DNA of 64,000 bases from Ancylobacter novellus DSM 506 (GTDB taxonomy: Bacteria > Pseudomonadota > Alphaproteobacteria > Rhizobiales > Xanthobacteraceae). The notes beneath the pieces are model-generated. The model saw only the letters and a program-made list of their open reading frames with translations. It ran no database searches and was not told where the DNA came from. This document shows positions 30,447-45,810 of the stretch, piece by piece. Within the stretch, counting starts at the first letter, position 1, and the number at the start of each line of letters is the position of its first letter. A program made the translations under genes and the position numbers. Location: positions 3,968,001 to 4,032,000 of the forward strand of contig NC_014217.1 of assembly GCF_000092925.1 (NCBI RefSeq). Reading direction: 5' to 3'.

Positions 30447-30533
30447 TGGTGCGGGTGGTCGGACTCGAACCGACACTCTGTCACCAGAAACGGATTTTGA
30501 GTCCGCCGCGTCTACCGGTTCCGCCACACCCGC
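30447..30533 (-). tRNA. tRNA-Leu (anticodon CAA)
   Basis: Read on the - strand, an acceptor stem GCGGGTG/CACCCGC with encoded CCA encloses a class II tRNA: D arm with GGTAGACGC, anticodon stem GCGGA/TCCGT with loop CTCAAAA (anticodon CAA), a long variable arm, and the T arm GTCGG-TTCGAGT-CCGAC. It decodes UUG. It lies 67 bp upstream of the gamma-glutamyltransferase start. No integrase or attachment duplicate is visible beside it. Confidence 0.97.
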
Positions 30534-31794: not shown

Positions 31795-32145
31795 GTGGAC
31801 AGACGAGGTTTTCTGCTCGGTCTCGCCGGTGCGGCGGGAACGATGGTTGCCGCCGGCACCCTGCTCAGTCCAGCGCAGGCCACGACGCTCAGCCAGGTGA
31901 AGGACTTCACGCCGCCGGACGGACTGCCCGAAGATGCACTCGCCGAGGATGCGCTCGCCGACGAGGCTCTCGCGACGCCGGACGGCACCCCCGTCGAGCC
32001 GGCGCATTGGGGTCCCCCCGGTCCGCCTCCCGGCTACTGGCGCCGTCGCCGGCGTCGGTGGCGCCGCCGCCAGCGCCGCGTGTGCCGGCGCGCCTGGAAC
32101 CGCTGGGGACGGCCTTATCGCCGCTGCCGCTGGGTCTGGTACTGA
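31795..32145 (+). CDS. Tat-signal exported protein with acidic middle and Arg/Trp-rich tail
   Basis: GTG 31795 has an excellent ribosome site (GGAGGT) and gives 116 residues. The N-terminus is a twin-arginine signal (DRRGFLLGLAGAAGTMVAAG). The middle is acidic and repetitive (EDALA, EDALA, DEALA near 46-60). The end is extremely basic and aromatic: YWRRRRRRWRRRQRRVCRRA then WNRWGRPYRRCRWVWY. Similar 'twin-arginine translocation pathway signal protein' entries with WRRRRWRRR tails occur in Hyphomicrobiales, with unknown function; binding to LPS, peptidoglycan or nucleic acid is conceivable. A strong terminator follows 23 bp after the stop. Confidence 0.75.
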   Translation: MDRRGFLLGLAGAAGTMVAAGTLLSPAQATTLSQVKDFTPPDGLPEDALAEDALADEALATPDGTPVEPAHWGPPGPPPGYWRRRRRRWRRRQRRVCRRAWNRWGRPYRRCRWVWY

Positions 32146-32167
32146 TCGCCACGAAGCAACGAGACGG

Positions 32168-32195
32168 AAGGGCGCGGTCTCCGCGCCCTTCTTTA
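32168..32195 (+). terminator. Rho-independent terminator after the Tat-signal gene
   Basis: A perfect 10-bp stem AAGGGCGCGG / CCGCGCCCTT with loop TCT is followed by CTTTAT. It ends where the convergent GT2 gene stops (32193-32195), separating the two transcripts. Confidence 0.88.
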
Positions 32196-33656
32196 TGTGT
32201 GGCGCTGCCACCACCGGACATCATCGACGGGGAGAGGCGTCGGGATGAGGGAGGTACGCGACAGCCGCGGATGATAGGCCGGATCGTCCTCGAACAAGTC
32301 GCGCCAGCGCTCGAGGAACAGCGCCATCTCGCTACCCAATACCCGACTCTGCCCGCGGCTGGCGCTTTCATAGTGAGTCAGCTCGGCATGCGGCGTGTAG
32401 ACGATGCGCAGGCCCAGCAGGCGCAGGCGCAGGCACATGTCGACGTCATTCCAACTAAGCGAAAAGCGCTCTTCGAAGCCATTTATCTCGTCGAGCAGAC
32501 TGCGCCGGGTCGCGAAGACCGCGCCTGTGACGACGGAATATTCCCGGTGGACATCGGCCCAGTTGCCGTAGGTCGGCGCGGCGCCGGGCTCGTCGAGGAA
32601 GAGATGAGCGCAGGCGTCGTTGGGGCCGAACGCCATACCGACATGCTGGAGCCTCCCGCTCGGATAGAGCAGTCGCGCGCCCACGCCACCCACGTCGGGC
32701 TCCAGCGCAAAGGTCATCAACGCCTCCAGCCAGTCGGGTGTGGCTATGACAAGATCGTCGTTCATTAGCACGACATGCTCGGTCGCAGCTAGCCGCCAAA
32801 GACCGTTCATCTTGCGCGCATAGTTGAACCGCTCGCCCGGCGCGCGCGGCGTCGCGACAAAACGCATGTCGAACGGCCATTCGCGCTGCCGGTAGAACCC
32901 GTCGTCCTCCATGTCGTCGCCGATAAGGACGGTCAGCCTGTCCACCGGCCATGATGCGGTGGTCAGGCTTTCGAGCAGGTCGAGGATATAGGGCCGGCCC
33001 GCTGGCCTTCCATCGACATCGCGCGGGGCCTCCCGCCGAGTCGGGATTACCAGGGTGACTGGCGGATGATCGGCAAGGCGCCGCGTCAGGCGCAGCGTAT
33101 CCGGCCGGCGCCCTGGCACGACGTCGAAATCGCCCAGCCCTCCGGCAGCCCACGTCGCCGCGACGCGACGGCGATCCTCAAGGTTCGCGCGGCGAGGGGC
33201 GCCGCGACGCACCGCAAGGATCTCGGGAATGCGCTCGACGGCTATTCCCGCAGCCTGCGCCCGCAGCAGAAGGTCATAGGTGACCGCGGTCCCGGCCTCG
33301 CCCGGCAGGCCCAGGCGCCGCAATGCCCGTCCATGGATGAAGATCGGCCAGCCGACATAGTCCTGCGCGATGAGCTGGGTGACGTCGAAGGACGGCTTCA
33401 GGAGGACATCCCGTTCGGCGCCGGTATCCTCGTCGAGCGCAACCTCGTCTCCATAGAAGATGCCGACATCCGGGCGCTGCTCGGAATATCGGCGGATGAG
33501 ATCGGCAAGCGTCGGATGAAGCTGCACCTGCGCATCCGTCAGCACGTACCAGGACGAATCGCCCTCGGGCAGAACGTTCAAGGCGACGCGATCCGACAGC
33601 TCGCCGCTCTCTGTGAGGAGAATGGTGAGGAAGAAGGGCTTCGGCGCGTTCAGCAT
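32193..33656 (-). CDS. GT2-family glycosyltransferase, duplicated GT-A layout
   Basis: The protein is 487 residues. The C-terminal half (about 205-470) is a clear GT2 domain: VTLVIPTRREAPR near residue 205, the metal motif NDD in HVVLMNDDLVIATPDWL, and NDVDMCLRLRLLG with the conserved ED-like acceptor position. The N-terminal ~190 residues look like a degenerate second GT-A fold (DAQVQLHPTLADLIRRYSEQ, IFYGDEVALDE), as in many rhamnan-type transferases. It is cytoplasmic, with no membrane segment. It lies 46 bp downstream of the RgpF-GT4 gene on the same strand and so probably belongs to the same surface-glycan operon. Confidence 0.88.
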   Translation of the reverse strand: MLNAPKPFFLTILLTESGELSDRVALNVLPEGDSSWYVLTDAQVQLHPTLADLIRRYSEQRPDVGIFYGDEVALDEDTGAERDVLLKPSFDVTQLIAQDYVGWPIFIHGRALRRLGLPGEAGTAVTYDLLLRAQAAGIAVERIPEILAVRRGAPRRANLEDRRRVAATWAAGGLGDFDVVPGRRPDTLRLTRRLADHPPVTLVIPTRREAPRDVDGRPAGRPYILDLLESLTTASWPVDRLTVLIGDDMEDDGFYRQREWPFDMRFVATPRAPGERFNYARKMNGLWRLAATEHVVLMNDDLVIATPDWLEALMTFALEPDVGGVGARLLYPSGRLQHVGMAFGPNDACAHLFLDEPGAAPTYGNWADVHREYSVVTGAVFATRRSLLDEINGFEERFSLSWNDVDMCLRLRLLGLRIVYTPHAELTHYESASRGQSRVLGSEMALFLERWRDLFEDDPAYHPRLSRTSLIPTPLPVDDVRWWQRHT

Positions 33657-33702
33657 GACGTGTTCATGTAGTTCTATGGTATCCAGTTGCCGTCACGGGC
33701 GA

Positions 33703-35664
33703 TCAGACCTCCGACAGTACACGCTTGATGCTATCTTCTATCCTTCGGGCGACGGTACGAGGCGACAGGAGCTGTTCAATCTTCGCCCGTGCGCGCGCCG
33801 CAAGAGCTTCGCGCTTGGCGGCCGGGAGACCGGCGGCCATTACCATGCACTCGGCAAAGTGGCCCATGTCGATACACCGGTCGGCAGTGCCTGTCGCGGC
33901 AAAGGCGCTGGCGCCATCCAGGGGCCGCCCTTCGCAGCGCACCGGAAAACCGGTCTCTGCATCGAGGTAATCACGCGAACCGCCGTAATCGGCCGCCACG
34001 ACGATGTTTCCACGCGCCAGCGCCTGCGCCAGCGCCGGATTGAAGCCCGGCAGGCACCGGCTGGAAACATAGATGTCCGCGAGGTCGGAGAGCACGCTCA
34101 GCTCCTGCCTGGTCATCGCCTTGGCGACGATGACACCAGGTGTTGCCGAACCTGCTACGATGGCCGAAGAACATTCCGGCTCAAGGACAAGCACCCAGTC
34201 GTGCGCGCCGAGTCCCGACTCGGCGAAGACGCGCACAAGATCCTCTACCCCGCCGCCCATCGATGGAGCGCCGGGCTCGGCCGCGCCGAGCATAATGCGC
34301 GCAGCTTCGGGGATCCCCAGCCGGCGGCGCAGCGCGTTCTGCTCTGATGGAGACGAAGTGACGCCGCGCAACGGCACGACATGTGGGATGATGTCGATCG
34401 GCCCCTGGAAATGGGGCCGCACGAGATCGGCGACGAAGCGGCTCGATGTCCAGATCGCATCGGCCTTCTCGAAGCAGTGGAGAAACTTTCGCCGCGAGAA
34501 ATCCTCAGCCGCATCGAGCAGGATGACCCGCTTGAGAGCGCGCTCCACCTCGTCGCGCAGTTCCCAGTTGGGATATTCATCCCATGACGAGGCATCGAGA
34601 TGAATGACGGCGATGTCGGCCGGCCCGGCGAAATCCGAAACGCGGATATTGGGGCTGATTCGGCGATGGGCGGAAAGCGCCTGGATGGGTAGAAGTCGCG
34701 TCTCGAAATCGGCGTGCATCAAGGCACGCAAATAGCCGCGTGACACGGCACCGAGCGCGTTGTCGACGTTCCATGCACCCGTGAAGCTGACCCGGAATCG
34801 GCGATCGGACGGGGAAGGGCCGAGTGGATATTTCCGATAGAAGGCCAGTTCGGCCAGAAGTCGTTCCGCCAGGGCGACGTCGTAGCCGTAACGCGTCAGT
34901 TCGTCCCGCCAGCCGCCGTCAGCATGCCGGTGATCGCGAGCCTGGAGCACGGAGATATCCACGAACGGGAAGCCCGCCGCGAGCAATTCGCGCCAGTTGC
35001 GATCGCCTCCATGGCGCGCTTGCGCCGTCCTGAACAGGACATCCACGACGAAGCCCGTCGATTTCATCAGGGACGCGAACCGCTCTTTCTGGCTGTCGCC
35101 GACATCGCCCAGATGGACGTAGCCGGCAATGCCGCGGATGAACGACTGAAACGCGAACGAACTCAATACCTTGCGCTTTATCGCGACGAAATTTCCCTCC
35201 GGCATCCAGCTGCCGTCAAGGCTGTCGGTCAAGCCGACAATATCTGCCGAACTGTTGCGGATGCAGTCCATCGCCGCATGAAGCGCCGGCCGGTTGGTGG
35301 GGCCCAGCAGGCTGTCATCCACAAGGTACAGGATCTCGACATCGGAGAGAGCAGGGTAGCGTCGCATGAGCTGCATCCACGCAGCGAAGATCGTCCCCCT
35401 GTTTTCCCGCAGGAAAAGCCCCCTGGCCGATCGGCGCAGCCAGGAATCGTCGTCGGTCAGCGGCCGGTCGGTCAGGACCAGCACATAGACGTCGACCCCC
35501 GCGCCGGTCAGCGACTCAACATAATGCCGTACATGCGCCCGGATCCGTCCGCCGAGTGAGCAGATGACGAACAGCGCCGCCTCCCGGCGCGGCGGCTCGA
35601 ACGCGATCCTTTTGAGCTGCGCCTCCGTATCTATTGATCTTTCATCGCCGGTTGAATGCCTCAT
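33703..35664 (-). CDS. RgpF-like (rhamnan synthesis F) and GT4 fusion protein
   Basis: The protein is 653 residues. The N-terminal ~270 match the rhamnan-synthesis F domain (PF05045-like): ICSLGGRIRAHVRHYVESL near 34, FLRENRG near 83 and YLVDDSLLGPT near 112, with IVGLTDS near 142. Residues ~295-640 are a GT4-type module with SFTGAWNVDNALGAVSRGYL at its start and FNPALAQALARGNIVVAADY as donor-site region; the usual EGFG is replaced by CLPGFN. Such fusions build deoxysugar-containing polysaccharides. It leads the - strand pair with the GT2 gene; its promoter must lie in the long gap towards the divergent methyltransferase-GT gene. Confidence 0.85.
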   Translation of the reverse strand: MRHSTGDERSIDTEAQLKRIAFEPPRREAALFVICSLGGRIRAHVRHYVESLTGAGVDVYVLVLTDRPLTDDDSWLRRSARGLFLRENRGTIFAAWMQLMRRYPALSDVEILYLVDDSLLGPTNRPALHAAMDCIRNSSADIVGLTDSLDGSWMPEGNFVAIKRKVLSSFAFQSFIRGIAGYVHLGDVGDSQKERFASLMKSTGFVVDVLFRTAQARHGGDRNWRELLAAGFPFVDISVLQARDHRHADGGWRDELTRYGYDVALAERLLAELAFYRKYPLGPSPSDRRFRVSFTGAWNVDNALGAVSRGYLRALMHADFETRLLPIQALSAHRRISPNIRVSDFAGPADIAVIHLDASSWDEYPNWELRDEVERALKRVILLDAAEDFSRRKFLHCFEKADAIWTSSRFVADLVRPHFQGPIDIIPHVVPLRGVTSSPSEQNALRRRLGIPEAARIMLGAAEPGAPSMGGGVEDLVRVFAESGLGAHDWVLVLEPECSSAIVAGSATPGVIVAKAMTRQELSVLSDLADIYVSSRCLPGFNPALAQALARGNIVVAADYGGSRDYLDAETGFPVRCEGRPLDGASAFAATGTADRCIDMGHFAECMVMAAGLPAAKREALAARARAKIEQLLSPRTVARRIEDSIKRVLSEV

Positions 35665-36226
35665 TTCCGCGGTCCAATGCTGGACCTCGACGATGCAGCA
35701 TGCTCAGACGACCGGGGTCGCGTGTTTGTCCATACGCCTCCCCACCGGACGCCAGACGCCGCCGGCGATGGCAGAATTGCGCGACCGTGAGAGCGCGATG
35801 CGCCGCGACGGCGCTTGTCTATTCCGGAGCGGCGCCTCCACGCACAACGCAGTGAATCATCGGCGCGAAGCAACATCAATTCGTAACATTCGTTGAGCCG
35901 TTGACGAGTGAACGAATATCCACAGCCATCAGTCCTGACTTCCCCAGCATACGTTTCGTGCAACCACAGTAGCAACACTTAATGTCTTACTGAAACCTTT
36001 CCAAAGGCCATTCTGCCCAAGGGCGCATGAGCGCGCCCCATTTGCAACCGCCGAGAAGCCGGACCGCTGTCCTTTCTCCCCGGGTCAACGCGGTCTCATT
36101 GCCAGCCGCGTCGGAGGATGTTTGAATGCCGCCGCGGTTGACCGCAGGCAGGATTCCCGATCCTTACGCCGCCGGCGACATACGCAAAGAGCTTACGAAA
36201 CGTTGGCCAAGTGAAGCGACTGAATT
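35665..36226. promoter_or_regulatory. 562-bp divergent intergenic region, AT-richer
   Basis: No convincing gene is found here. The region separates two divergent glycan genes and has lower GC than its flanks, especially 35860-36010. It contains an inverted pair ATTCGTT (35888-35894) and AACGAAT (35911-35917) around a TTGACG hexamer at 35901, a possible operator/promoter. Short open frames exist but have no ribosome site or recognisable product. Both flanking promoters are expected here. Confidence 0.5.
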
Positions 36227-38347
36227 ATGGACGACATTATGCCGATCAGCAGTAAAAGGTTCGGCGAATTTGACGATACTACTTTCTCTATATCGCTCGG
36301 CTTCGACGACGACCCCGCTCTGCCCAACCTGTCCGTGAACGCGGCGGCGTTCATGCAGCCGATCCATTTGGAACATTCGGCCTGGCACGAGCATATTCCG
36401 TTCGCTTTCTGGCTCACCGGCGCCCATCGCCCGCGGACATTCGTCGAGCTGGGCACCCATTACGGCGTGTCCTATTTCGCGTTCTGCCAGGCGGTCGAGC
36501 GGCTGCGACTGTCCACCCGCTGCTACGCCGTCGACAGCTGGCAGGGCGACGAGCATGCGGGCCTCTACGGCGGCGACGTCTATGAGAAGGTCTCCACCCA
36601 CAACGCCCGTTTCTACTCGCGTTTCTCCGCCCTCATGCGGACGACCTTCGACGAAGGGGTCGCGTTCTTTGCCGATGGCGAGATAGATCTGCTGCACATC
36701 GACGGGTACCACACGCTCGAAGCCGTGAAGCACGATTTCGAGGCATGGCTCCCCAAGCTGTCCGAGCGAGGCCTCGTCATTCTCCATGACAGCAACGAAC
36801 GCAAGGGCGATTTCGGTGTCTTCCAGTTCATCGAGGAACTGCGGAAAACCTACCCCTGCTTCGAGTTCGCCCATGGTCATGGCCTGGCCATCGTCGGCGT
36901 CGGCCCCGACCAGCCCTCCCTGGTGAAGCGACTGTTCGAAGCGGACGGCGACGAGGCGAAGCGACGGAACGTCCAGGAGATCTTCGCCCGGCTCGGCAAA
37001 GCCTGCTCCAACGAATACGCCGCCGGTCATCTCAGGTCGGAAGTCGCCGCACTGTCGAGGGAGCGGGATCGTGCCGTCGGCGAGATCGAGCGGCTCGGCA
37101 CATTGGTGGCGCGGACCGAGGCGGAGGCGCGCCGGCTGACGGGGATGGTGGGCGAACGCGACAACCTGAACGAGACGATCGCGGCAGCTCGGGATCAACT
37201 TGCCGAGCTGACCGAGGAAAATGCGGCCTTTCGTCGAGACGCCCGCGGCGCGGCCGAGACGCTCAAAGCCGTGACCCAGAACAACAAGGTCCTGCACGGG
37301 CAGCTCGAGCAGCGCGAGCGGGAAGCCGCCGAAACGCTGAACATGAACAACGTCCTACGCGCGCAGGTCGGGCAGCACGAGCGGGAACTCGCCGCGGCGG
37401 CACAGCAACTGGCGTTGCGGGAGCAGGAGCTCCGGCGCCTCCGGCGGTCTACGCCCTGGCGAATGACAGCGCTGCTGCGTGCGGTGACGGGAGCGTCGCG
37501 ATCAGTAAGTCGGAAGCAGGAACGCGCACCCCGATTCATGACCGCGTCCGCGAGGCCCAAACTCGACCACGCCGACGAAGCCTTCGGTTTTGAACGCGAC
37601 TGGTATCTCTCGGCCTATGCCGATGTCGCCGCGTCCGGAATGGATGCAGAAGAGCACTACCTCAGGCACGGCAAGGGTGAAGGGCGCTTCCCTTCGCGCG
37701 CCGCCGCCGAGTTCGACCGCGGAGGATATCTTTCCGCCAATCCCGATGTTGCCGCGTCGGGCATGGATCCCTTTCTGCATTATTGCGCGCATGGAAAGGC
37801 CGAAGGGCGGCATTTTGCTCGAATCGGCGGTCAAGGGAGCCCGCAGCTCGCCGCCGAGGCGCGCCAGCCGTCGTTCCTGGAACGGCGCCGCTATGAGGCT
37901 TCCACGCCCCGCGGCGACAAGGTCCGGATCCCGGATTCGCTGCATCCCGTCGTCTCGGTGATCATCCCCACCTACGGGCAGGTCGAGTTCACGCTCCGAT
38001 GCCTGTCGTCGATCTCGGCCCATCCTCCGCAGGTGCCGTTCGAGATCATTGTCATGGACGACGCCTTCCCCGGCGAGGAGGTCGCGCGGCTCAAGACCGA
38101 GGTCGAGGGCATCAGGCTCATACGGAACCCGGAGAACCAGGGTTTCCTGTATACCTGCAACATTGCCGCCAAGGAGGCGTCCGGGAAGTATCTGTATTTC
38201 CTGAACAACGACACCGAGGTGTTTCCCGGTGCCATCGACGCCCTGGTCGACGTTCTGGAGGCGGATCAGACTGTCGGCCTGACCGGCTCGAAGCTGATCT
38301 TTCCGGACGGCAAGCTGCAGGAGGCGGGGGGGGATCATCTGGAGTGA
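36227..38347 (+). CDS. Methyltransferase / coiled coil / GT2 protein, 5' part of a frameshifted gene
   Basis: This frame encodes 706 residues, then ends prematurely inside a GT2 domain. In order: a class I SAM methyltransferase (about 70-215: FVELGTHYGVSYFAF, DLLHIDGYHTLEAVKHDFEA, LVILHDS); a coiled coil (about 280-420); two copies of a ~28-residue module of the type YLSxxxDVAASGMDxxxHY..HGKxEGR (about 455-530); and the first half of a GT2 domain (VVSVIIPTYGQ near 575, LNNDTEVFPGAIDAL near 665). After LQEAGG the frame reads four wrong codons to a stop. Removing one G from the G8 run at 38326-38333 restores IIWSDATGWNFGRG and fuses it to the next frame, giving a 1221-residue protein. Confidence 0.85.
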   Translation: MDDIMPISSKRFGEFDDTTFSISLGFDDDPALPNLSVNAAAFMQPIHLEHSAWHEHIPFAFWLTGAHRPRTFVELGTHYGVSYFAFCQAVERLRLSTRCYAVDSWQGDEHAGLYGGDVYEKVSTHNARFYSRFSALMRTTFDEGVAFFADGEIDLLHIDGYHTLEAVKHDFEAWLPKLSERGLVILHDSNERKGDFGVFQFIEELRKTYPCFEFAHGHGLAIVGVGPDQPSLVKRLFEADGDEAKRRNVQEIFARLGKACSNEYAAGHLRSEVAALSRERDRAVGEIERLGTLVARTEAEARRLTGMVGERDNLNETIAAARDQLAELTEENAAFRRDARGAAETLKAVTQNNKVLHGQLEQREREAAETLNMNNVLRAQVGQHERELAAAAQQLALREQELRRLRRSTPWRMTALLRAVTGASRSVSRKQERAPRFMTASARPKLDHADEAFGFERDWYLSAYADVAASGMDAEEHYLRHGKGEGRFPSRAAAEFDRGGYLSANPDVAASGMDPFLHYCAHGKAEGRHFARIGGQGSPQLAAEARQPSFLERRRYEASTPRGDKVRIPDSLHPVVSVIIPTYGQVEFTLRCLSSISAHPPQVPFEIIVMDDAFPGEEVARLKTEVEGIRLIRNPENQGFLYTCNIAAKEASGKYLYFLNNDTEVFPGAIDALVDVLEADQTVGLTGSKLIFPDGKLQEAGGDHLE
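38326..38333 (+). repeat. G8 homopolymer at the frameshift site
   Basis: Eight consecutive G lie exactly where the GT2 coding frame breaks; seven would keep the frame open for 1221 codons. The run is either an assembly/sequencing error, a fixed mutation, or a slippage-prone contingency tract. Confidence 0.9.
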
Positions 38348-38441
38348 TGCCACTGGCTGGAACTTCGGACGCGGAAGCGATCCCTATCGCCCGGAATATA
38401 ACTATCGACGCGAGGTCGATTACATTTCGGGCGCGGCCATC

Positions 38442-39893
38442 ATGGTGCGGCAGGATCTGTTCGCCCAACTGGGGGGCTTCGATCCGATATTTGCACCCGC
38501 CTATTACGAAGACACCGATCTTGCCTTCCGCATCCGGCAGGCCGGGTTCAAGGTGGTCTATGAGCCGCAATCGGCCGTCGTGCATCACGAAGGCGTCTCG
38601 CACGGCACGGATATAAACACCGGCGTGAAGGCCCACCAGGTGAAGAATGCCGAGCGCATGCTGGAGCGGTGGCGCGACGTCCTGCAGCGCGATCATTTTG
38701 ACGGCCCGGCCGATCTCTTCCGGGCCAAGGACCGCGCCCGGCACAAGCCGGTCATACTGGTTGTCGATCACTATGTGCCCGAGCCGGACCGCGACGCCGG
38801 CTCCCGCGTGATCGTGAGCTTCCTAACCGCTCTGGTAAGCGCAGGGTGGGTCGTGAAGCTGTGGCCCCACAACCGGGCCTACTCGGAGCTTTACACGAGG
38901 CCGGTTGAGGATCTCGGCGTCGAGGTTCTCGACCATCGCTATCTCGGCAGCTTCGAAGACTGGATTCGGCTGAACGGTCCCTTCCTGGACCATGTCCTCG
39001 TCAGTCGTCCGTCGATAGCGGAGGACGTTCTACCTGATCTTCGCGCCTTCACACGCGCTCATCTCAGCTACTATGGCGTCGACATCCATTTCCTGCGCAT
39101 GAAGCGGCAGGCCGAGATCGCCGGCAACCCGCAGCTTCTGAACGAGGCAGCCGCGATGGAGCGGGCCGAGCGGCAGCTCTGGCGGCAGTTCGACAAGGTC
39201 ATCTACCTCTCGCATGTCGAAACGGCGCTGGTGGAGGAGCTGGAACCCGAAACGGACGCGCACGCGGTCGTGCCGTTCCATTTCGATCACTTCAACGAGC
39301 GGACCAAGCCGACGGAAGGAAACACGATCCTGTTCGTCGCTGGATTCTCCCACCCGCCGAACGTCGATGCGGCCGAGTTCCTGGTGCGCGAGATCATGCC
39401 GCTGGTCTACGCGCGCCGCCCCGACGCGCGGCTGGCGATCGTCGGCTCGCATCCGACCAATGCCGTGCGCGCCCTTGCCGCCGCAAACATCGAGGTGACC
39501 GGCTGGGTGAGCGACGAGCGCCTGATGCAGTACTACGCCGAAGCGAGGCTCGCCGTGGTGCCGCTGCGGTTCGGAGCGGGGGTCAAGGGGAAGGTGGTGG
39601 AAGCGCTGAGCCAAGGGCTCCCGCTCGTTACGACGCCAATCGGTGCGGAGGGCATCGTCGGCGTGACCGAGGCCGCGCTGGTCCGCGAGAGCGCGAGAGA
39701 GATCGCCGACGGCATTCTTACCCTGCTGAACGACGACGACGCATGGATGAAGGTCTCGAACGATCAGGTGCGGTTCGCCAAGGCAAACTTCTCGCTCGAG
39801 GCGTTGCAGGAGTCGCTCGTCGCCGCGCTTCAGCCGAAGCTGGACACCAAGCCAGCTGAGAGTCCTCGAGGGATAAAGGCAGCCGAACTTTGA
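38442..39893 (+). CDS. GT2 (C-terminal half) and GT4 protein, 3' part of the frameshifted gene
   Basis: As a separate frame this starts at ATG 38442 inside a GT2 domain (483 residues), but coding similarity begins right after the G8 run at 38334 (IIWSDATGWNFGRGSD, then REVDYISGAAIMVRQDLF). It finishes the GT2 domain (YYEDTDLAFRIRQAGFKVVY with the conserved EDTDL). A complete GT4-like module follows (about 110-460), opening KPVILVVDHYVPEPDRDAGS and carrying PLRFGAGVKGKVVEALSQGL as donor site. Alone, the GT2 half would be inactive but the GT4 module could be translated if a start is used; no clear ribosome site precedes 38442. It is best read as one broken gene, 36227-39893. Confidence 0.85.
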   Translation: MVRQDLFAQLGGFDPIFAPAYYEDTDLAFRIRQAGFKVVYEPQSAVVHHEGVSHGTDINTGVKAHQVKNAERMLERWRDVLQRDHFDGPADLFRAKDRARHKPVILVVDHYVPEPDRDAGSRVIVSFLTALVSAGWVVKLWPHNRAYSELYTRPVEDLGVEVLDHRYLGSFEDWIRLNGPFLDHVLVSRPSIAEDVLPDLRAFTRAHLSYYGVDIHFLRMKRQAEIAGNPQLLNEAAAMERAERQLWRQFDKVIYLSHVETALVEELEPETDAHAVVPFHFDHFNERTKPTEGNTILFVAGFSHPPNVDAAEFLVREIMPLVYARRPDARLAIVGSHPTNAVRALAAANIEVTGWVSDERLMQYYAEARLAVVPLRFGAGVKGKVVEALSQGLPLVTTPIGAEGIVGVTEAALVRESAREIADGILTLLNDDDAWMKVSNDQVRFAKANFSLEALQESLVAALQPKLDTKPAESPRGIKAAEL

Positions 39894-40025
39894 CGGCGCT
39901 GGCGCATGCCGTGGTGACTCCGATGAGTTGGCACAGCCAGCGTTCTCGGCCGGCGAGGCGGCCCCCCGCTGGCACACCGCCTCATCCCGACAAAGACGAT
40001 CAATCCATCGCAACAAGGGTATAGA

Positions 40026-41603
40026 ATGGCGGCGCTACGCGGGCGGAGCGTGATTGCGATCCTCGCCCTTATCTGGATATTCATGGTCTATTGGGACTTT
40101 GGATTGCCAGGTCTCCAGGCCGACGAAGCAAATCACTACGCGTTTGCGCCGGGCATCTTGTCGGAAGGTGCGGCGAGGCTCCACCACTATCGCTACCCCG
40201 ACAATTTCATAGATCGGCTCGACGGCCTAGCACGATACCCGATCGTTGGCGGCAGCTTATATAATACCGACATCGGCGCCTATGTCGGCATTCCATTATT
40301 CATCTCTATCGGTTTCTCCGTAGAAAGCTTACGGATATTCGAAGGTTTTCTGACCTTCGGAGCTATATTGTCGTTAGTCGCATTGATCGCCCGTATCTTT
40401 GGCTGGGGTCCGGCATTTTTCTTCGGCCTTATTGCCATCACGGACCCGAGCAATATTTTCTCGGCTCGCTCGCAGGCGCACTACTTCTGGTATGTCATCC
40501 TGTTCGCCGCCCTGGCAGCGCACTGTTTGCTTTCCGACTACTGGCAACCACGCCGATCGCCTTGGCTCGCTATTGGCGCTGGCAGCAGCACGGCCCTGTC
40601 CGTGCTGTGTTATTTCGTCGGCGTGTTTTTCGCGATCCCGTTGATCCTGACGGCAATCTGGACCTATCGCCGTCGACCTTGGCACTTGGTTGCCTTTCTT
40701 ATCGCCGGCATCGTCGCTTATTCGCCCGTCATTTACGCCGTCGTCTCGATCTATCTGGCAAGTCCTGCATTATTAGCCAACTTCGGTATGCCGGGCTTCG
40801 CCTTGGCCGAATCTATTCCGACATTCAGCGTCGAAAATCTGCGCCGCATGTCCAACCTGATCCAGGGCGGATTCGGCTATTATGGACATGCGCTGGGAGT
40901 TGTCGGCTATTTCCGCGACAACTACTCCACCGTGCGGCTGGCCATCATTGGCGGGATGCTCGCTTTGCTTGTGGTGACGGCACTCCGTTCCCGGTCTCCC
41001 GATAGCACCAAGAGCGCGTTCTACCTGGTTGCTTCCGGCTGCGTTGCGGCCTTCATCACAGGCGCCTTTTTTCTTAAGGCGATAAATTACCACCACTTCA
41101 TCGCCTACGCTGTCGTCGTCTATATGTTGATGGCTTCGCTCATCGCGTCCGACCGAGTGGTGAAGACTATTGCCATTGCCGCCTGCTCCGTGCTGATCGC
41201 CACCAATTTGGTCGCGCTCCATGCCGCACACAAAGCGCTGAACAAGACGGGGGGGCTCGCTTATCATAACGAAGCTTATTCGGTGCCAGCGGAATTATTC
41301 CGTACGACGCTGAAAGACTACCGTCCAGTATTTGCTTCTTGGGGCTCGCACCTGCAGTTTCTGTTCCAGACGCGAGGACGGATACCCTATACGTTCATCG
41401 GCTCTCCCTCGACCGCGGAATTCTCGACCCTGGTCAAGCAGTACGGAAAAATTGCCATCATCATCGGCGTTAAGGAGCGCCGGACAGTTACGGATTTCGG
41501 TGGCCCGGTGGATTTCGAGATGCACTTCTCGCAGAGAGACGGGGCTCCTCTCTTTGATATAATTCTCGTCGGCCAAGAAAACGCCAAGCCCGCTCCACAA
41601 TGA
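40026..41603 (+). CDS. Polytopic GT-C-like glycosyltransferase (ArnT/GT39-type)
   Basis: The protein is 525 residues with about ten to eleven hydrophobic helices and a ~120-residue C-terminal soluble part. In the first periplasmic loop sits QADEANHY, the acidic motif position of GT-C enzymes that use polyprenyl-phosphate sugars. Base composition differs: long stretches (for example 40250-40400) are near 45% GC while neighbours are above 65%, and codons ending in A/T are frequent. This suggests recent horizontal acquisition. It would act in the inner membrane, transferring a sugar to a glycan or lipid on the periplasmic side. The acceptor is unknown. Confidence 0.8.
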   Translation: MAALRGRSVIAILALIWIFMVYWDFGLPGLQADEANHYAFAPGILSEGAARLHHYRYPDNFIDRLDGLARYPIVGGSLYNTDIGAYVGIPLFISIGFSVESLRIFEGFLTFGAILSLVALIARIFGWGPAFFFGLIAITDPSNIFSARSQAHYFWYVILFAALAAHCLLSDYWQPRRSPWLAIGAGSSTALSVLCYFVGVFFAIPLILTAIWTYRRRPWHLVAFLIAGIVAYSPVIYAVVSIYLASPALLANFGMPGFALAESIPTFSVENLRRMSNLIQGGFGYYGHALGVVGYFRDNYSTVRLAIIGGMLALLVVTALRSRSPDSTKSAFYLVASGCVAAFITGAFFLKAINYHHFIAYAVVVYMLMASLIASDRVVKTIAIAACSVLIATNLVALHAAHKALNKTGGLAYHNEAYSVPAELFRTTLKDYRPVFASWGSHLQFLFQTRGRIPYTFIGSPSTAEFSTLVKQYGKIAIIIGVKERRTVTDFGGPVDFEMHFSQRDGAPLFDIILVGQENAKPAPQ

Positions 41604-41636
41604 ACGAGGACAGCTAACCACTTCCCTGCCGATTCG

Positions 41637-43550
41637 ATGATTGGGCGCGAGATGCTGGAAAGGCGTGACGACATCCAGGGGCTGCGCGCGCTGGCGGTTC
41701 TTGCCGTGATCGCGTTCCACCTCCGGCTGCCCTATTTTCCCGGCGGCTATGTCGGCGTCGACGTGTTCTTCGTGATCTCGGGCTTTGTGATCACCTCGTC
41801 CATCGCGAAGGACATCGCGAGCGGTTCGTTTTCCTTCGGGACCTTCTTCCTCAAGCGCCTCCGCCGCCTCCTGCCGGCGCTGACCGCGACGGCAGCGCTG
41901 ACGCTGGTCGCGGCAGGCCTTCTCTTTCCACCGACACTGTTCGTGCAGACGGCGCAATCGGCGCTCTATTCAATCACCGGGCTCTCCAACATCTTCTTCT
42001 GGAGGGAGGCCGGCTATTTCGCCAACGCGTCACTTACCAAGCCGCTCCTGCATACCTGGTCGCTCAGCGTCGAGGCGCAGTTCTATCTTGTCTGGCCGGT
42101 GCTGCTGGTCCTCGCCTATCGCCAGCGCACGCGGTTGCACCTCGTCGGACTGCTCGGCGGGCTGTCGATCGCCGGGCTCATCGCCTCGGAGATGGTGACC
42201 CGAAGCGACCCGGAGATGGCGTTCTTCCTGACGCCGTTCCGCTTCTTCGAATTCGCCATAGGCGGCCTGCTGGCGCTCGCCCCTCCGACATTCCGCCCAA
42301 GGGGGCTCGTGGCGGAGGTGCTTCTGCTCGCAGCGCTCGCGGCGTTGGCCGCCAGCATCGTCCTGCTCAGCGAAGCGACGCCGTTCCCCGGCCTGACCGC
42401 TCTCCTGCCGTGCGGCGCGACGGCATTGGCGATCTTCGCCGGCAGAGCGGCCGTGACCGGCCGGATATTGGACAACCCCGCCGGCCGCTACATCGGCGAG
42501 GTTTCGTATTCACTCTACCTCGTGCACTGGCCCATCATCGTCTTCTGGACCTACGCCCTGTTCCGCCCGCCGACCCCCGTTGAAGTACTGGCCATGGGTG
42601 TGGCTACGTTCGCGGCGGGGCACATGCTTTTCTGGACCGTCGAGGACCGCTTCCGGCGCTCCTTGTGGAACCGCCATACGGCCGGCGCTCGTCTGGCGAT
42701 CGTGGTCGTGCTTCCATCGATCATATTCGGCGCCGGCGCTGTGTGGGCTCAGGGCGGCTGGGCGTGGCGTTCGCCCAACTACTTCCCGTCCGGCTTCGTC
42801 GATGCCCAACTCGCGAAGCGCTATCGGACGCTGAACGCCCTTTGCTCGGCGAGGGGGTGGGCAAAGTGCTGGGAGCCGGTCGAGACCAGTAAGAAGCGGG
42901 TGCTTGTCGTTGGCGACAGCTATGCGCCTGATGGCCTGAACATTGTCGATGTCAGCCTGCACGACGCCTATTTCATCCTCGATACGGTCCCCGGTTGTCC
43001 GCCCTATCCTGATATAGCGAAGATCTTCCCCGGCCGTATGGCCAATATCGACAAATGCAACGCGGCCAATCAGCGTCGATTTAATACCGATTACTTGCGC
43101 TATTTCGATGCAATCGTGATCTCGAATTCATGGTCCTGGTACAAACCAGCCCATCTCGAAGCGTTTCTGAAACAGGTCAGATCCGCGGCGCCCGATGCGA
43201 GGATAGTGATACTCGGTGCCTATTACACGCTGAAGCAGAACTGCTGGGAGCTCATCGAGCGCTCCGGCCGCGGGGCGTGCAGCGATCCCGCATTCCTCGA
43301 GCCGCCTCTTGCGCTCGAAAAGGATGCAGAGGCGGTCGCCAGCAAATACGGCGCAACCTTCCTGTCCAAACGCGAACTCATGTGTGGTCCTGCGGAATGC
43401 CAGTTCTATGTCGATGACGCGAAATCGATCCCCTTCGCCTGGGACAGGAACCACCTGAGCTACGAGTTCGCGAGGCTGATCGGCGAGCGCGCGAAGGACA
43501 AGATTCGTCGGTCTCTGCTCGGCTCGACGGATACCACTGCCATGCCCTGA
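41637..43550 (+). CDS. OafA/YrhL-type acyltransferase with SGNH domain
   Basis: The 637-residue protein (ATG 41637; ATG 41652 is also possible) has an acyltransferase-3 membrane domain with about ten helices (1-370): RALAVLAVIAFHLRLP with the conserved His, GGYVGVDVFFVISGFVI, and LLHTWSLSVEAQFYLVWPVL. A periplasmic SGNH hydrolase-like domain follows (about 415-625) with VLVVGDSYAPDG (nucleophile Ser) and the DRNH block carrying Asp and His. Fused proteins of this class O-acetylate surface polysaccharides. Two conserved Cys pairs in the SGNH part may be disulfides. It lies 33 bp after the low-GC GT-C-like gene on the same strand, so acylation of the same glycan is likely. Confidence 0.92.
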   Translation: MIGREMLERRDDIQGLRALAVLAVIAFHLRLPYFPGGYVGVDVFFVISGFVITSSIAKDIASGSFSFGTFFLKRLRRLLPALTATAALTLVAAGLLFPPTLFVQTAQSALYSITGLSNIFFWREAGYFANASLTKPLLHTWSLSVEAQFYLVWPVLLVLAYRQRTRLHLVGLLGGLSIAGLIASEMVTRSDPEMAFFLTPFRFFEFAIGGLLALAPPTFRPRGLVAEVLLLAALAALAASIVLLSEATPFPGLTALLPCGATALAIFAGRAAVTGRILDNPAGRYIGEVSYSLYLVHWPIIVFWTYALFRPPTPVEVLAMGVATFAAGHMLFWTVEDRFRRSLWNRHTAGARLAIVVVLPSIIFGAGAVWAQGGWAWRSPNYFPSGFVDAQLAKRYRTLNALCSARGWAKCWEPVETSKKRVLVVGDSYAPDGLNIVDVSLHDAYFILDTVPGCPPYPDIAKIFPGRMANIDKCNAANQRRFNTDYLRYFDAIVISNSWSWYKPAHLEAFLKQVRSAAPDARIVILGAYYTLKQNCWELIERSGRGACSDPAFLEPPLALEKDAEAVASKYGATFLSKRELMCGPAECQFYVDDAKSIPFAWDRNHLSYEFARLIGERAKDKIRRSLLGSTDTTAMP

Positions 43551-43575
43551 TGGAGCGCCATTCCCGCGCCCTTCC

Positions 43576-44490
43576 TCATTGGGGCGGTGCCGGGCGCGGG
43601 CGCGCTGGCTCTCCCCCGCCGAGCAGGTCGATAAAGGCCTGCGCCGCCTTGGTGGCGTAACGTTCGCGGTGGCGCAGGGCGAGGAAGGACCGGCGCGGCA
43701 TGGGATAGCCGACCAGCGTCATCGCGCCGGCACGCAAGGCTTCCTCGACGACGCGGCGCGAGATGACGGTGACGCCGCTGCCCGCCTCCACGGCCGCGCG
43801 CACCGCCTCGTTCGAGGGATATTCCAGCGCCACGTCGAGTTCGCCCGGCGAAATGCCGAGGCTGCGCAGATGCGCCTCGAAGATGGCCCGCGTCCCCGAG
43901 CCGGGCTCGCGCAGCACCCACGGCCCCTCCCGCAGCTGCTCGGGCGCGGTCGGTGCCCGCCAGGTCCAGCGATGGGTGACCGGGGCGACCAGCACCATCT
44001 CGTCCTCGGCGACCGGCGTCGCCGACAGCACGGGATCGTCGATCCCGCCCTCGATGAAGCCGAGATCGGCGGCACCGTCGCGCACGCAGTCGGCGACAAA
44101 ATCGGTGTTGCCGATGACGAGGCTCACGGCGATGCCGGGATAACGCGCGCGAAAGCGCGCGACCAGCGCCGGCAGCCAGTAATTGCCGGTCGTCTGGCTG
44201 CCCGCCAGGGCCAGCGAGCCATGGGCGAGGCCGGCAAGGTCGGCCAGCACCTTCTCCGCCGCCGCCGCCCGCGCCAGCACGGCGCGCGCCTCCGGAAGGA
44301 AGAGCCGGCCGGCCTGCGTCAGCACGATGCCGCGGCCGACCCGGTCGAACAGCCGCGCTGCATGGCGCGCCTCCAGCGCGGCGATGGCGGCGCTGGTCGC
44401 CGATGGGGTGAGGTTGAGCTGCTCGGCGGCGCGGGTGACATGCTCACGCTCGGCGACGGCGACGAAGATGCGCAGCTGCTCCAGTGTCAT
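43576..44490 (-). CDS. LysR-family regulator (YeiE/CbbR-like)
   Basis: The 304-residue protein has an N-terminal winged HTH (LRIFVAVAEREHVTRAAEQL, then TPSATSAAIAALEARH) and a LysR effector domain (about 90-290: GSLALAGSQTTGNYWLPALV, then EPGSGTRAIFEAHLR, a pattern of the CbbR/CysB/YeiE group). It follows the yeiH-type gene by 16 bp on the same strand, so they are co-transcribed, unlike the divergent order in E. coli. Control of the exporter by a sulfur-compound effector is the likely role, perhaps through the palindrome upstream of the exporter gene. Confidence 0.9.
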   Translation of the reverse strand: MTLEQLRIFVAVAEREHVTRAAEQLNLTPSATSAAIAALEARHAARLFDRVGRGIVLTQAGRLFLPEARAVLARAAAAEKVLADLAGLAHGSLALAGSQTTGNYWLPALVARFRARYPGIAVSLVIGNTDFVADCVRDGAADLGFIEGGIDDPVLSATPVAEDEMVLVAPVTHRWTWRAPTAPEQLREGPWVLREPGSGTRAIFEAHLRSLGISPGELDVALEYPSNEAVRAAVEAGSGVTVISRRVVEEALRAGAMTLVGYPMPRRSFLALRHRERYATKAAQAFIDLLGGGEPARPRPAPPQ

Positions 44491-45734: not shown

Positions 45735-45810
45735 TGGTGCCGCTTGCGTGACTCGAACACGCGACCCTCGCATTACGAATGCGATGCTCTACCGACTGAG
45801 CTAAAGCGGC
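45735..45810 (-). tRNA. tRNA-Thr (anticodon CGT)
   Basis: On the - strand the acceptor GCCGCTT pairs with AAGCGGC, with CCA encoded. The D arm contains AGCTCAGTCGGTAGAGC, the anticodon stem TCGCA/TGCGA holds loop TTCGTAA (anticodon CGT), and the T arm is CGTG-TTCGAGT-CACG. It is 76 bases with CCA and decodes ACG. Confidence 0.97.

What the first reader, a model, noticed from the sequence alone, without database searches (positions are those of the whole stretch)
36227..39893. A 1221-codon methyltransferase-GT2-GT4 gene broken at a G8 run
Two adjacent + strand frames together encode one glycan enzyme. The break lies at a run of eight G (38326-38333), in the middle of a GT2 domain. With seven G the frame continues as LQEAGG then IIWSDATGWNFGRG, the expected GT2 continuation. 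A homopolymer in a surface-glycan transferase is where phase variation by slippage occurs in other bacteria; it is rarely described in Hyphomicrobiales. A sequencing error is the simplest rival.
Basis: partly seen in the sequence, partly recalled or inferred. Interest (0 to 1): 0.8.

Follow-up and report, generated by a model that had tools for sequence, protein, structure and literature searches.

The report
Glycosyltransferase gene broken at G8 run
A single large sugar-transferring enzyme gene in a soil bacterium is cut in two by a one-base frame slip inside a run of eight Gs; related bacteria carry it whole, so this looks like a recent slippage mutation or a sequencing slip, not a demonstrated on/off switch.

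Summary
A G8 run at 38326-38333 splits one methyltransferase-GT2-GT4 gene into a 706-aa frame and a 483-aa frame. In 86 of 86 distinct related loci examined (89 loci, three held twice) this point lies in one uninterrupted frame. The best hit, P0002 (1191 aa), is one protein, 79% identical to the first piece and 92% to the second. The genome is very probably Starkeya (Ancylobacter) novella DSM 506: 4,765,023 bp, 454 plus 44x Illumina, 80 annotated pseudogenes.

Phase variation is not supported as an evolved switch. The longest G run near the site in the relatives is 6. Runs of 8 or more are rare in this genome (6 distinct). Among 41 distinct runs of 7 or more, the coding model found no other break inside a gene, though 8 were unclear. 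mutS and mutL are present. The second piece shows no further lesion, so the break is recent or artefactual. Best reading: a genuine recent slippage null allele (about 0.55); then a sequencing error (0.27); a true contingency locus 0.12. Only raw reads or re-sequenced colonies can decide.

The parts
36227..38347 (+). First piece, 706 aa: methyltransferase (PF13578), a linker stretch, first part of a GT2 domain; its stop lies 12 nt after the run
36443..36790 (+). Methyltransf_24 domain (residues 73-188 of piece 1)
   Evidence: 84.3 bits, cut-off 26.3
37955..38293 (+). First part of the GT2 domain (PF00535, residues 577-689 of piece 1, profile 1-115 of 168)
38326..38333 (+). G8 run where the reading frame changes
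38298..38441 (+). Stretch of the second frame that is open but has no start codon; from the run onward it encodes the conserved GT2 continuation
38442..39893 (+). Second piece, 483 aa: rest of GT2 and a GT4 domain; its ATG is an internal methionine of P0002
39321..39734 (+). GT4 domain (PF13692, residues 294-431 of piece 2)
   Evidence: 94.4 bits, cut-off 27
40026..41603 (+). Neighbour: 525-aa protein without a Pfam match; membrane protein by the look of its sequence (inference)
41637..43550 (+). Neighbour: AT3 acyltransferase with SGNH domain (glycan O-acylation type)
32193..33656 (-). Neighbour: GT2-type glycosyltransferase
33703..35664 (-). Neighbour: 653-aa protein with a sub-threshold RgpF (rhamnan synthesis) match
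   Evidence: 23.6 bits, cut-off 25

Best explanation
One three-domain glycan enzyme gene (methyltransferase-GT2-GT4) carries a recent one-step length change inside a G8 run, made by replication slippage in the sequenced lineage. As sequenced, the first frame meets a stop 12 nt after the run. The GT2 domain loses its last part and the GT4 domain is not made, or made poorly from an internal ATG without a clear ribosome-binding site. It is in effect an off allele in a small glycan-modification island. The run probably exists because this lineage writes two adjacent glycines as GGG GGG where the relatives examined use GGC GGC or GGC GGG (the DNA of P0002 was not seen). Shown: one frame in relatives, the position of the break, the absence of further decay. 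Inferred: that the change is real DNA rather than a sequencing slip, that slippage made it, and that the allele is off.
For: 86 of 86 distinct related loci (89 loci, three held twice) are in one frame across the point (the three stops first seen there are natural 3' ends). P0002 is one protein with 79% and 92% identity to the pieces, and its match to piece 1 ends exactly at the run. The second frame has 531 open codons without a further stop. Relative-rate count in the second piece, 497 columns, counting columns where three outgroups agree: 3 changes on the window side, 5 on the P0002 side, 7 where both differ. The genome was finished with 454 (53.5x) plus Illumina (44.3x) and polished. The two other runs of 8 that lie in genes are intact across full Pfam domains. 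The six other same-strand frame changes next to runs of 7 or more proved to be junctions between neighbouring genes. Codons of nine relatives at the site.
Against: No raw reads and no second isolate could be examined. [quoted passage not shown] The first half of GT2 shows 2 changes on the window side against 0 on the P0002 side in 145 columns, too few to weigh.
Confidence: 0.55

Rival explanations
1. Residual sequencing error: the true chromosome carries a whole gene, and the run was miscounted in the 454-based consensus.
For: The break sits in the longest homopolymer of the window. The gene shows no decay. The assembly is 454-based and the stated error bound, under 1 in 100,000, still allows up to about 48 errors in the genome. 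GeneTack's authors expect single BLASTp-validated cases to be errors.
Against: Illumina polishing at 44x. The two other runs of 8 in genes leave their frames whole. Of 41 distinct runs of 7 or more, 8 lie within one coding frame, 18 at an edge of coding sequence, 8 are unclear, and of 7 same-strand frame changes only this one is inside a gene. The genome paper lists 80 pseudogenes, so a real frameshift is not unusual here.
Confidence: 0.27
2. Contingency locus: the run slips reversibly during growth and switches the enzyme, and so a surface glycan, on and off.
For: A G run of 8 lies inside a reading frame of a surface-glycan type enzyme; in Campylobacter jejuni tracts of 8 or more have been shown to switch genes (PMC6321876, passages). 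The coding sequence downstream is kept.
Against: The longest G run within 30 nt of the site in the relatives is 6. Runs of 8 or more are depleted, not enriched. Of six such runs three are outside genes and two lie in gamma-glutamyltranspeptidase and IlvD/Edd genes. mutS and mutL are present in long open frames. Of the long G/C runs sampled in other Ancylobacter genomes most lie outside or at the edge of coding sequence (24 of 29 classified loci).
Confidence: 0.12
3. Recoding: the ribosome or RNA polymerase slips on the G run and makes some full-length protein.
For: Both frames overlap over the run and the two pieces are otherwise intact.
Against: No relative examined has a frame change there (0 of 86 distinct loci), so the site is not a conserved recoding signal.
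Confidence: 0.03
4. Two separate working genes.
For: Two ORFs of 706 and 483 aa exist.
Against: The cut is inside a GT2 domain. The second ORF starts at an internal methionine of P0002, with no clear ribosome-binding site in the 40 nt before it (sequence printed, judged by eye). 0 of 86 distinct relatives are split there.
Confidence: 0.03

Closest known systems
Methyltransferase-GT2-GT4 multidomain glycosyltransferases (PF13578 + PF00535 + PF13692)
   Same: Same domain content; P0002 is a one-piece version; by my count 39 of the 120 listed hits carry all three families (2480 hits in all)
   Different: Here the chain is broken in GT2 by a frame change in a G8 run
Simple-sequence-repeat phase-variable loci (poly-G contingency genes of Campylobacter)
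   Same: A G8 tract inside the reading frame of a glycan-type enzyme
   Different: Tract not kept in relatives, no set of such tracts found in this genome, mismatch repair genes present, length variation not observable here
Singleton frameshifted genes / recent pseudogenes (GeneTack class)
   Same: One frame change, confirmed by homology, seen in this genome only
   Different: The record's own annotation was not available here, so how it is labelled is not known

Membership tests
MT-GT2-GT4 multidomain glycosyltransferase | All three domains in order | tested here: met
   PF13578 and first part of PF00535 in piece 1; tail of PF13641 (20 bits, below the cut-off 27) and PF13692 in piece 2
MT-GT2-GT4 multidomain glycosyltransferase | One continuous reading frame | tested here: not met
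   Frame changes at 38326-38333; continuous across this point in 86 of 86 distinct related loci
SSR phase-variable locus | G/C tract of 7-8 or more inside a reading frame | tested here: met
   cut-offs from PMC6321876 passages
SSR phase-variable locus | Tract kept in homologues or strains | tested here: not met
   Longest G run within 30 nt of the site is 2 to 6 in the 89 loci (86 distinct); no second strain of the species was available
SSR phase-variable locus | Part of a set of over-represented tracts in surface genes | tested here: not met
   Six runs of 8 or more in the genome, depleted against expectation, only this one in a glycan gene
SSR phase-variable locus | Run length varies reversibly within a clone | not testable with these tools
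   No reads
Frameshifted pseudogene | Frame broken relative to intact homologues | tested here: met
Frameshifted pseudogene | Further decay or relaxed selection | tested here: not met
   No second lesion; 3 against 5 lineage changes in the second piece
Programmed frameshift | Conserved shift site in homologues | tested here: not met
   0 of 86 distinct related loci shifted

The most novel reading that the evidence does not exclude
A young contingency locus in a non-pathogenic soil chemolithotroph that has mismatch repair genes: two synonymous glycine codons have become GGG GGG and made a slippery G run in a glycan enzyme, so that DSM 506 cultures hold a mix of on and off cells.
Probability: 0.12. 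Interest if true: 0.5.

Novelty: new member of a known kind. Interest (0 to 1): 0.18.

Why it matters
If it is a real off allele, the type strain lacks one glycan enzyme, which matters for anyone studying its envelope. If it switches, it would be an unusual case of homopolymer phase variation in a free-living member of the Hyphomicrobiales. If it is an error, the reference record of a type strain needs correction. None of these changes what is known about frame changes in runs.

Tried and rejected
A first codon model and the run classification made with it could not tell sense from antisense frames at 68% GC and were dropped; a second model scored against the other five frames replaced them. 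The display script missed frames running off the end of a stretch; one search repeated five of the six junction checks without that fault and confirmed a stop and a nearby start in each; the sixth (window 49243) stands. The first scan of genome contigs with piece 2 alone found no relative; an alignment query did. Near matches in plasmids: none.

Literature searches for phase variation with homopolymers in Rhizobiales or relatives: one search found no paper with all its terms; some searches listed 5, 12 of 49 and 10 of 2,145 papers; one search listed one (PMC4516964, listing only, on dinucleotide repeats in blood-borne species). None of the listed titles and abstract beginnings concerns this gene or homopolymer phase variation of a glycan gene in this order; the lists are capped and I make no wider claim of absence.

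Long G/C runs in other Ancylobacter genomes were looked at as support for a genus-wide switch and rejected. One search listed 129 places in 26 of 30 genomes; 30 loci were fetched, one had no run at the expected place, and 29 were classified (two of them the same place): 14 unclear or noncoding, 9 at an edge, 1 between genes, 4 in one coding frame, 1 same-strand frame change that is a junction of two genes. The other 99 places were not examined, except G005:C4:53279, classed as noncoding. Structure prediction was not run because it would not bear on the question.

Full report
What is there. The window is G000:C1:3968001-4032000 of a 4,765,023-bp single-contig genome. That is the published length of the Starkeya novella type strain chromosome (PMC3570799, abstract), now Ancylobacter novellus DSM 506. 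Genus-mates agree: contig lengths tie G016 and G008 to Ancylobacter amanitiformis and A. oerskovii; a third genus-mate, G003, ties to a record called Bosea sp. 117. The identification rests on length and kinship, not on a record name. The paper describes a non-motile soil bacterium.

The break. ORF 36227-38347 (706 aa) and ORF 38442-39893 (483 aa) flank a G8 run at 38326-38333. Pfam places a methyltransferase and the first 115 of 168 positions of the GT2 profile in the first, and a sub-threshold GT2 tail (PF13641) plus GT4 in the second. The second frame is open from 38298 without a start codon before 38442. In nine relatives fetched with more flank (L029-L037), homology to piece 1 ends at residue 702 (LQEAGG) and homology to the second frame resumes there in the same relative frame. 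Seven of the nine write the two glycines as GGC GGC and two as GGC GGG.

Wider test. In 80 loci and the nine above, 89 of 89 have both halves adjacent in one frame, and the longest G run within 30 nt of the end of the first-half match is 2 to 6. Three of the nine are the same places as three of the 80, so this is 86 distinct loci. Three loci first flagged for a stop proved to be alignments running past the natural end of the protein. The protein search with piece 1 listed 120 of 2480 hits; only the 7996 candidates sharing most words were scored. The best hit other than the window's own protein, P0002, is one 1191-aa protein, 79% identical over 99% of piece 1; piece 2 matches it at 92% over 464 residues, and the match to piece 1 ends exactly at the run. 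By my reading of the table, 39 of the 120 carry all three families. No near-identical intact copy was listed, although a protein of the full length would have been within the length limit; longer members hidden in the window protein's own cluster (5 members) cannot be excluded.

Is it recent? The second frame has 531 open codons. With three relatives as outgroup, and counting only columns where they agree, the second piece (497 columns) shows 3 changes on the window side, 5 on the P0002 side and 7 where both differ; the first half of GT2 (145 columns) shows 2, 0 and 0. There is no sign of decay, so the break is recent, reversible or not real.

Is it a sequencing error? The genome was built from 454 (53.5x) and Illumina (44.3x) reads, polished and finished, with a stated error rate under 1 in 100,000 (PMC3570799, section 8 read whole), and 80 pseudogenes were reported (section 13 read whole). 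Six distinct G/C runs of 8 or more exist in the genome. Three lie outside genes by ORF and Pfam context, two inside genes whose Pfam domains run intact across them (gamma-glutamyltranspeptidase, IlvD/Edd), and the sixth is this one. Of 41 distinct runs of 7 or more (49 overlapping words, merged), the coding model gave 8 within one frame, 18 at an edge of coding sequence, 8 unclear and 7 same-strand frame changes. Of the seven, six are junctions of neighbouring genes and one is this gene. The IlvD/Edd run was classed as an edge by the model and shown to be inside an intact domain only by Pfam, so the model is rough. Runs are therefore not generally miscounted in a way that breaks genes, but one error cannot be excluded. 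[quoted passage not shown]).

Is it a switch? In Campylobacter jejuni, tracts of 8 or more G have been shown to switch genes (PMC6321876, passages), and rates of 1e-4 to 1.6e-3 per division are quoted (PMC8355987, passages). C. jejuni NCTC 11168 has 29 loci with tracts of 7 or more (PMC4965091, search listing only). Here runs are depleted: 4 runs of 8 or more against 23 expected from a first-order model in a 464-kb sample, and that sample happens to hold 4 of the genome's 6. mutS and mutL matches lie in open frames of 941 and 640 aa; C. jejuni lacks such repair (recalled). Neither the homologues examined nor other genes of this genome show a kept tract of this kind in a glycan gene. The locus fulfils the tract criterion; of the other criteria none that could be tested was met.

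Setting. The gene lies in a stretch of lower GC (0.57-0.66 between about 32 and 44 kb, against 0.67-0.72 on both sides) between tRNA-Leu (30447-30533) and tRNA-Thr (45735-45810), with a GT2 gene, a protein with a sub-threshold RgpF match, and an AT3-SGNH acyltransferase. The flanking genes were not found beside the nine relatives' homologues; the only matches were of the neighbouring GT2 gene to the relatives' own GT2 domains. A role in decorating a surface glycan is inferred from this company.

Conclusion. One gene, broken inside a G8 run: firm. A real recent slippage allele is the likeliest cause, a sequencing error second; a true contingency locus remains possible but has no support beyond the tract itself.

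Noticed in passing
G016:C3:413196-413275; G028:C1:644123-644185 (L193): Other Ancylobacter genomes hold very long G/C runs (about 34 G and 42 G close together in G016; 26 C, 15 G and 19 G in a row in G028). 26 of 30 genomes of the genus have a G run of 10 or more, the window's genome none; 24 of 29 sampled loci lie outside or at the edge of coding sequence. Cause unknown; assembly artefact not excluded.
   Followed up: partly
32000-44000: Low-GC glycan-modification island between a tRNA-Leu and a tRNA-Thr, possibly acquired.
   Followed up: partly
36227-37900: The N-terminal methyltransferase and linker part is not matched in the three nearest genus homologues, which have other N-termini on the same GT2-GT4 core. 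It is also less like P0002 (79% over piece 1 as a whole) than the core is (140 of 145 and 461 of 497 identical columns). Suggests domain shuffling.
   Followed up: no
3318, 38326, 41249, 49243: The window holds 4 of the genome's 41 distinct G/C runs of 7 or more in 1.3% of its length.
   Followed up: no
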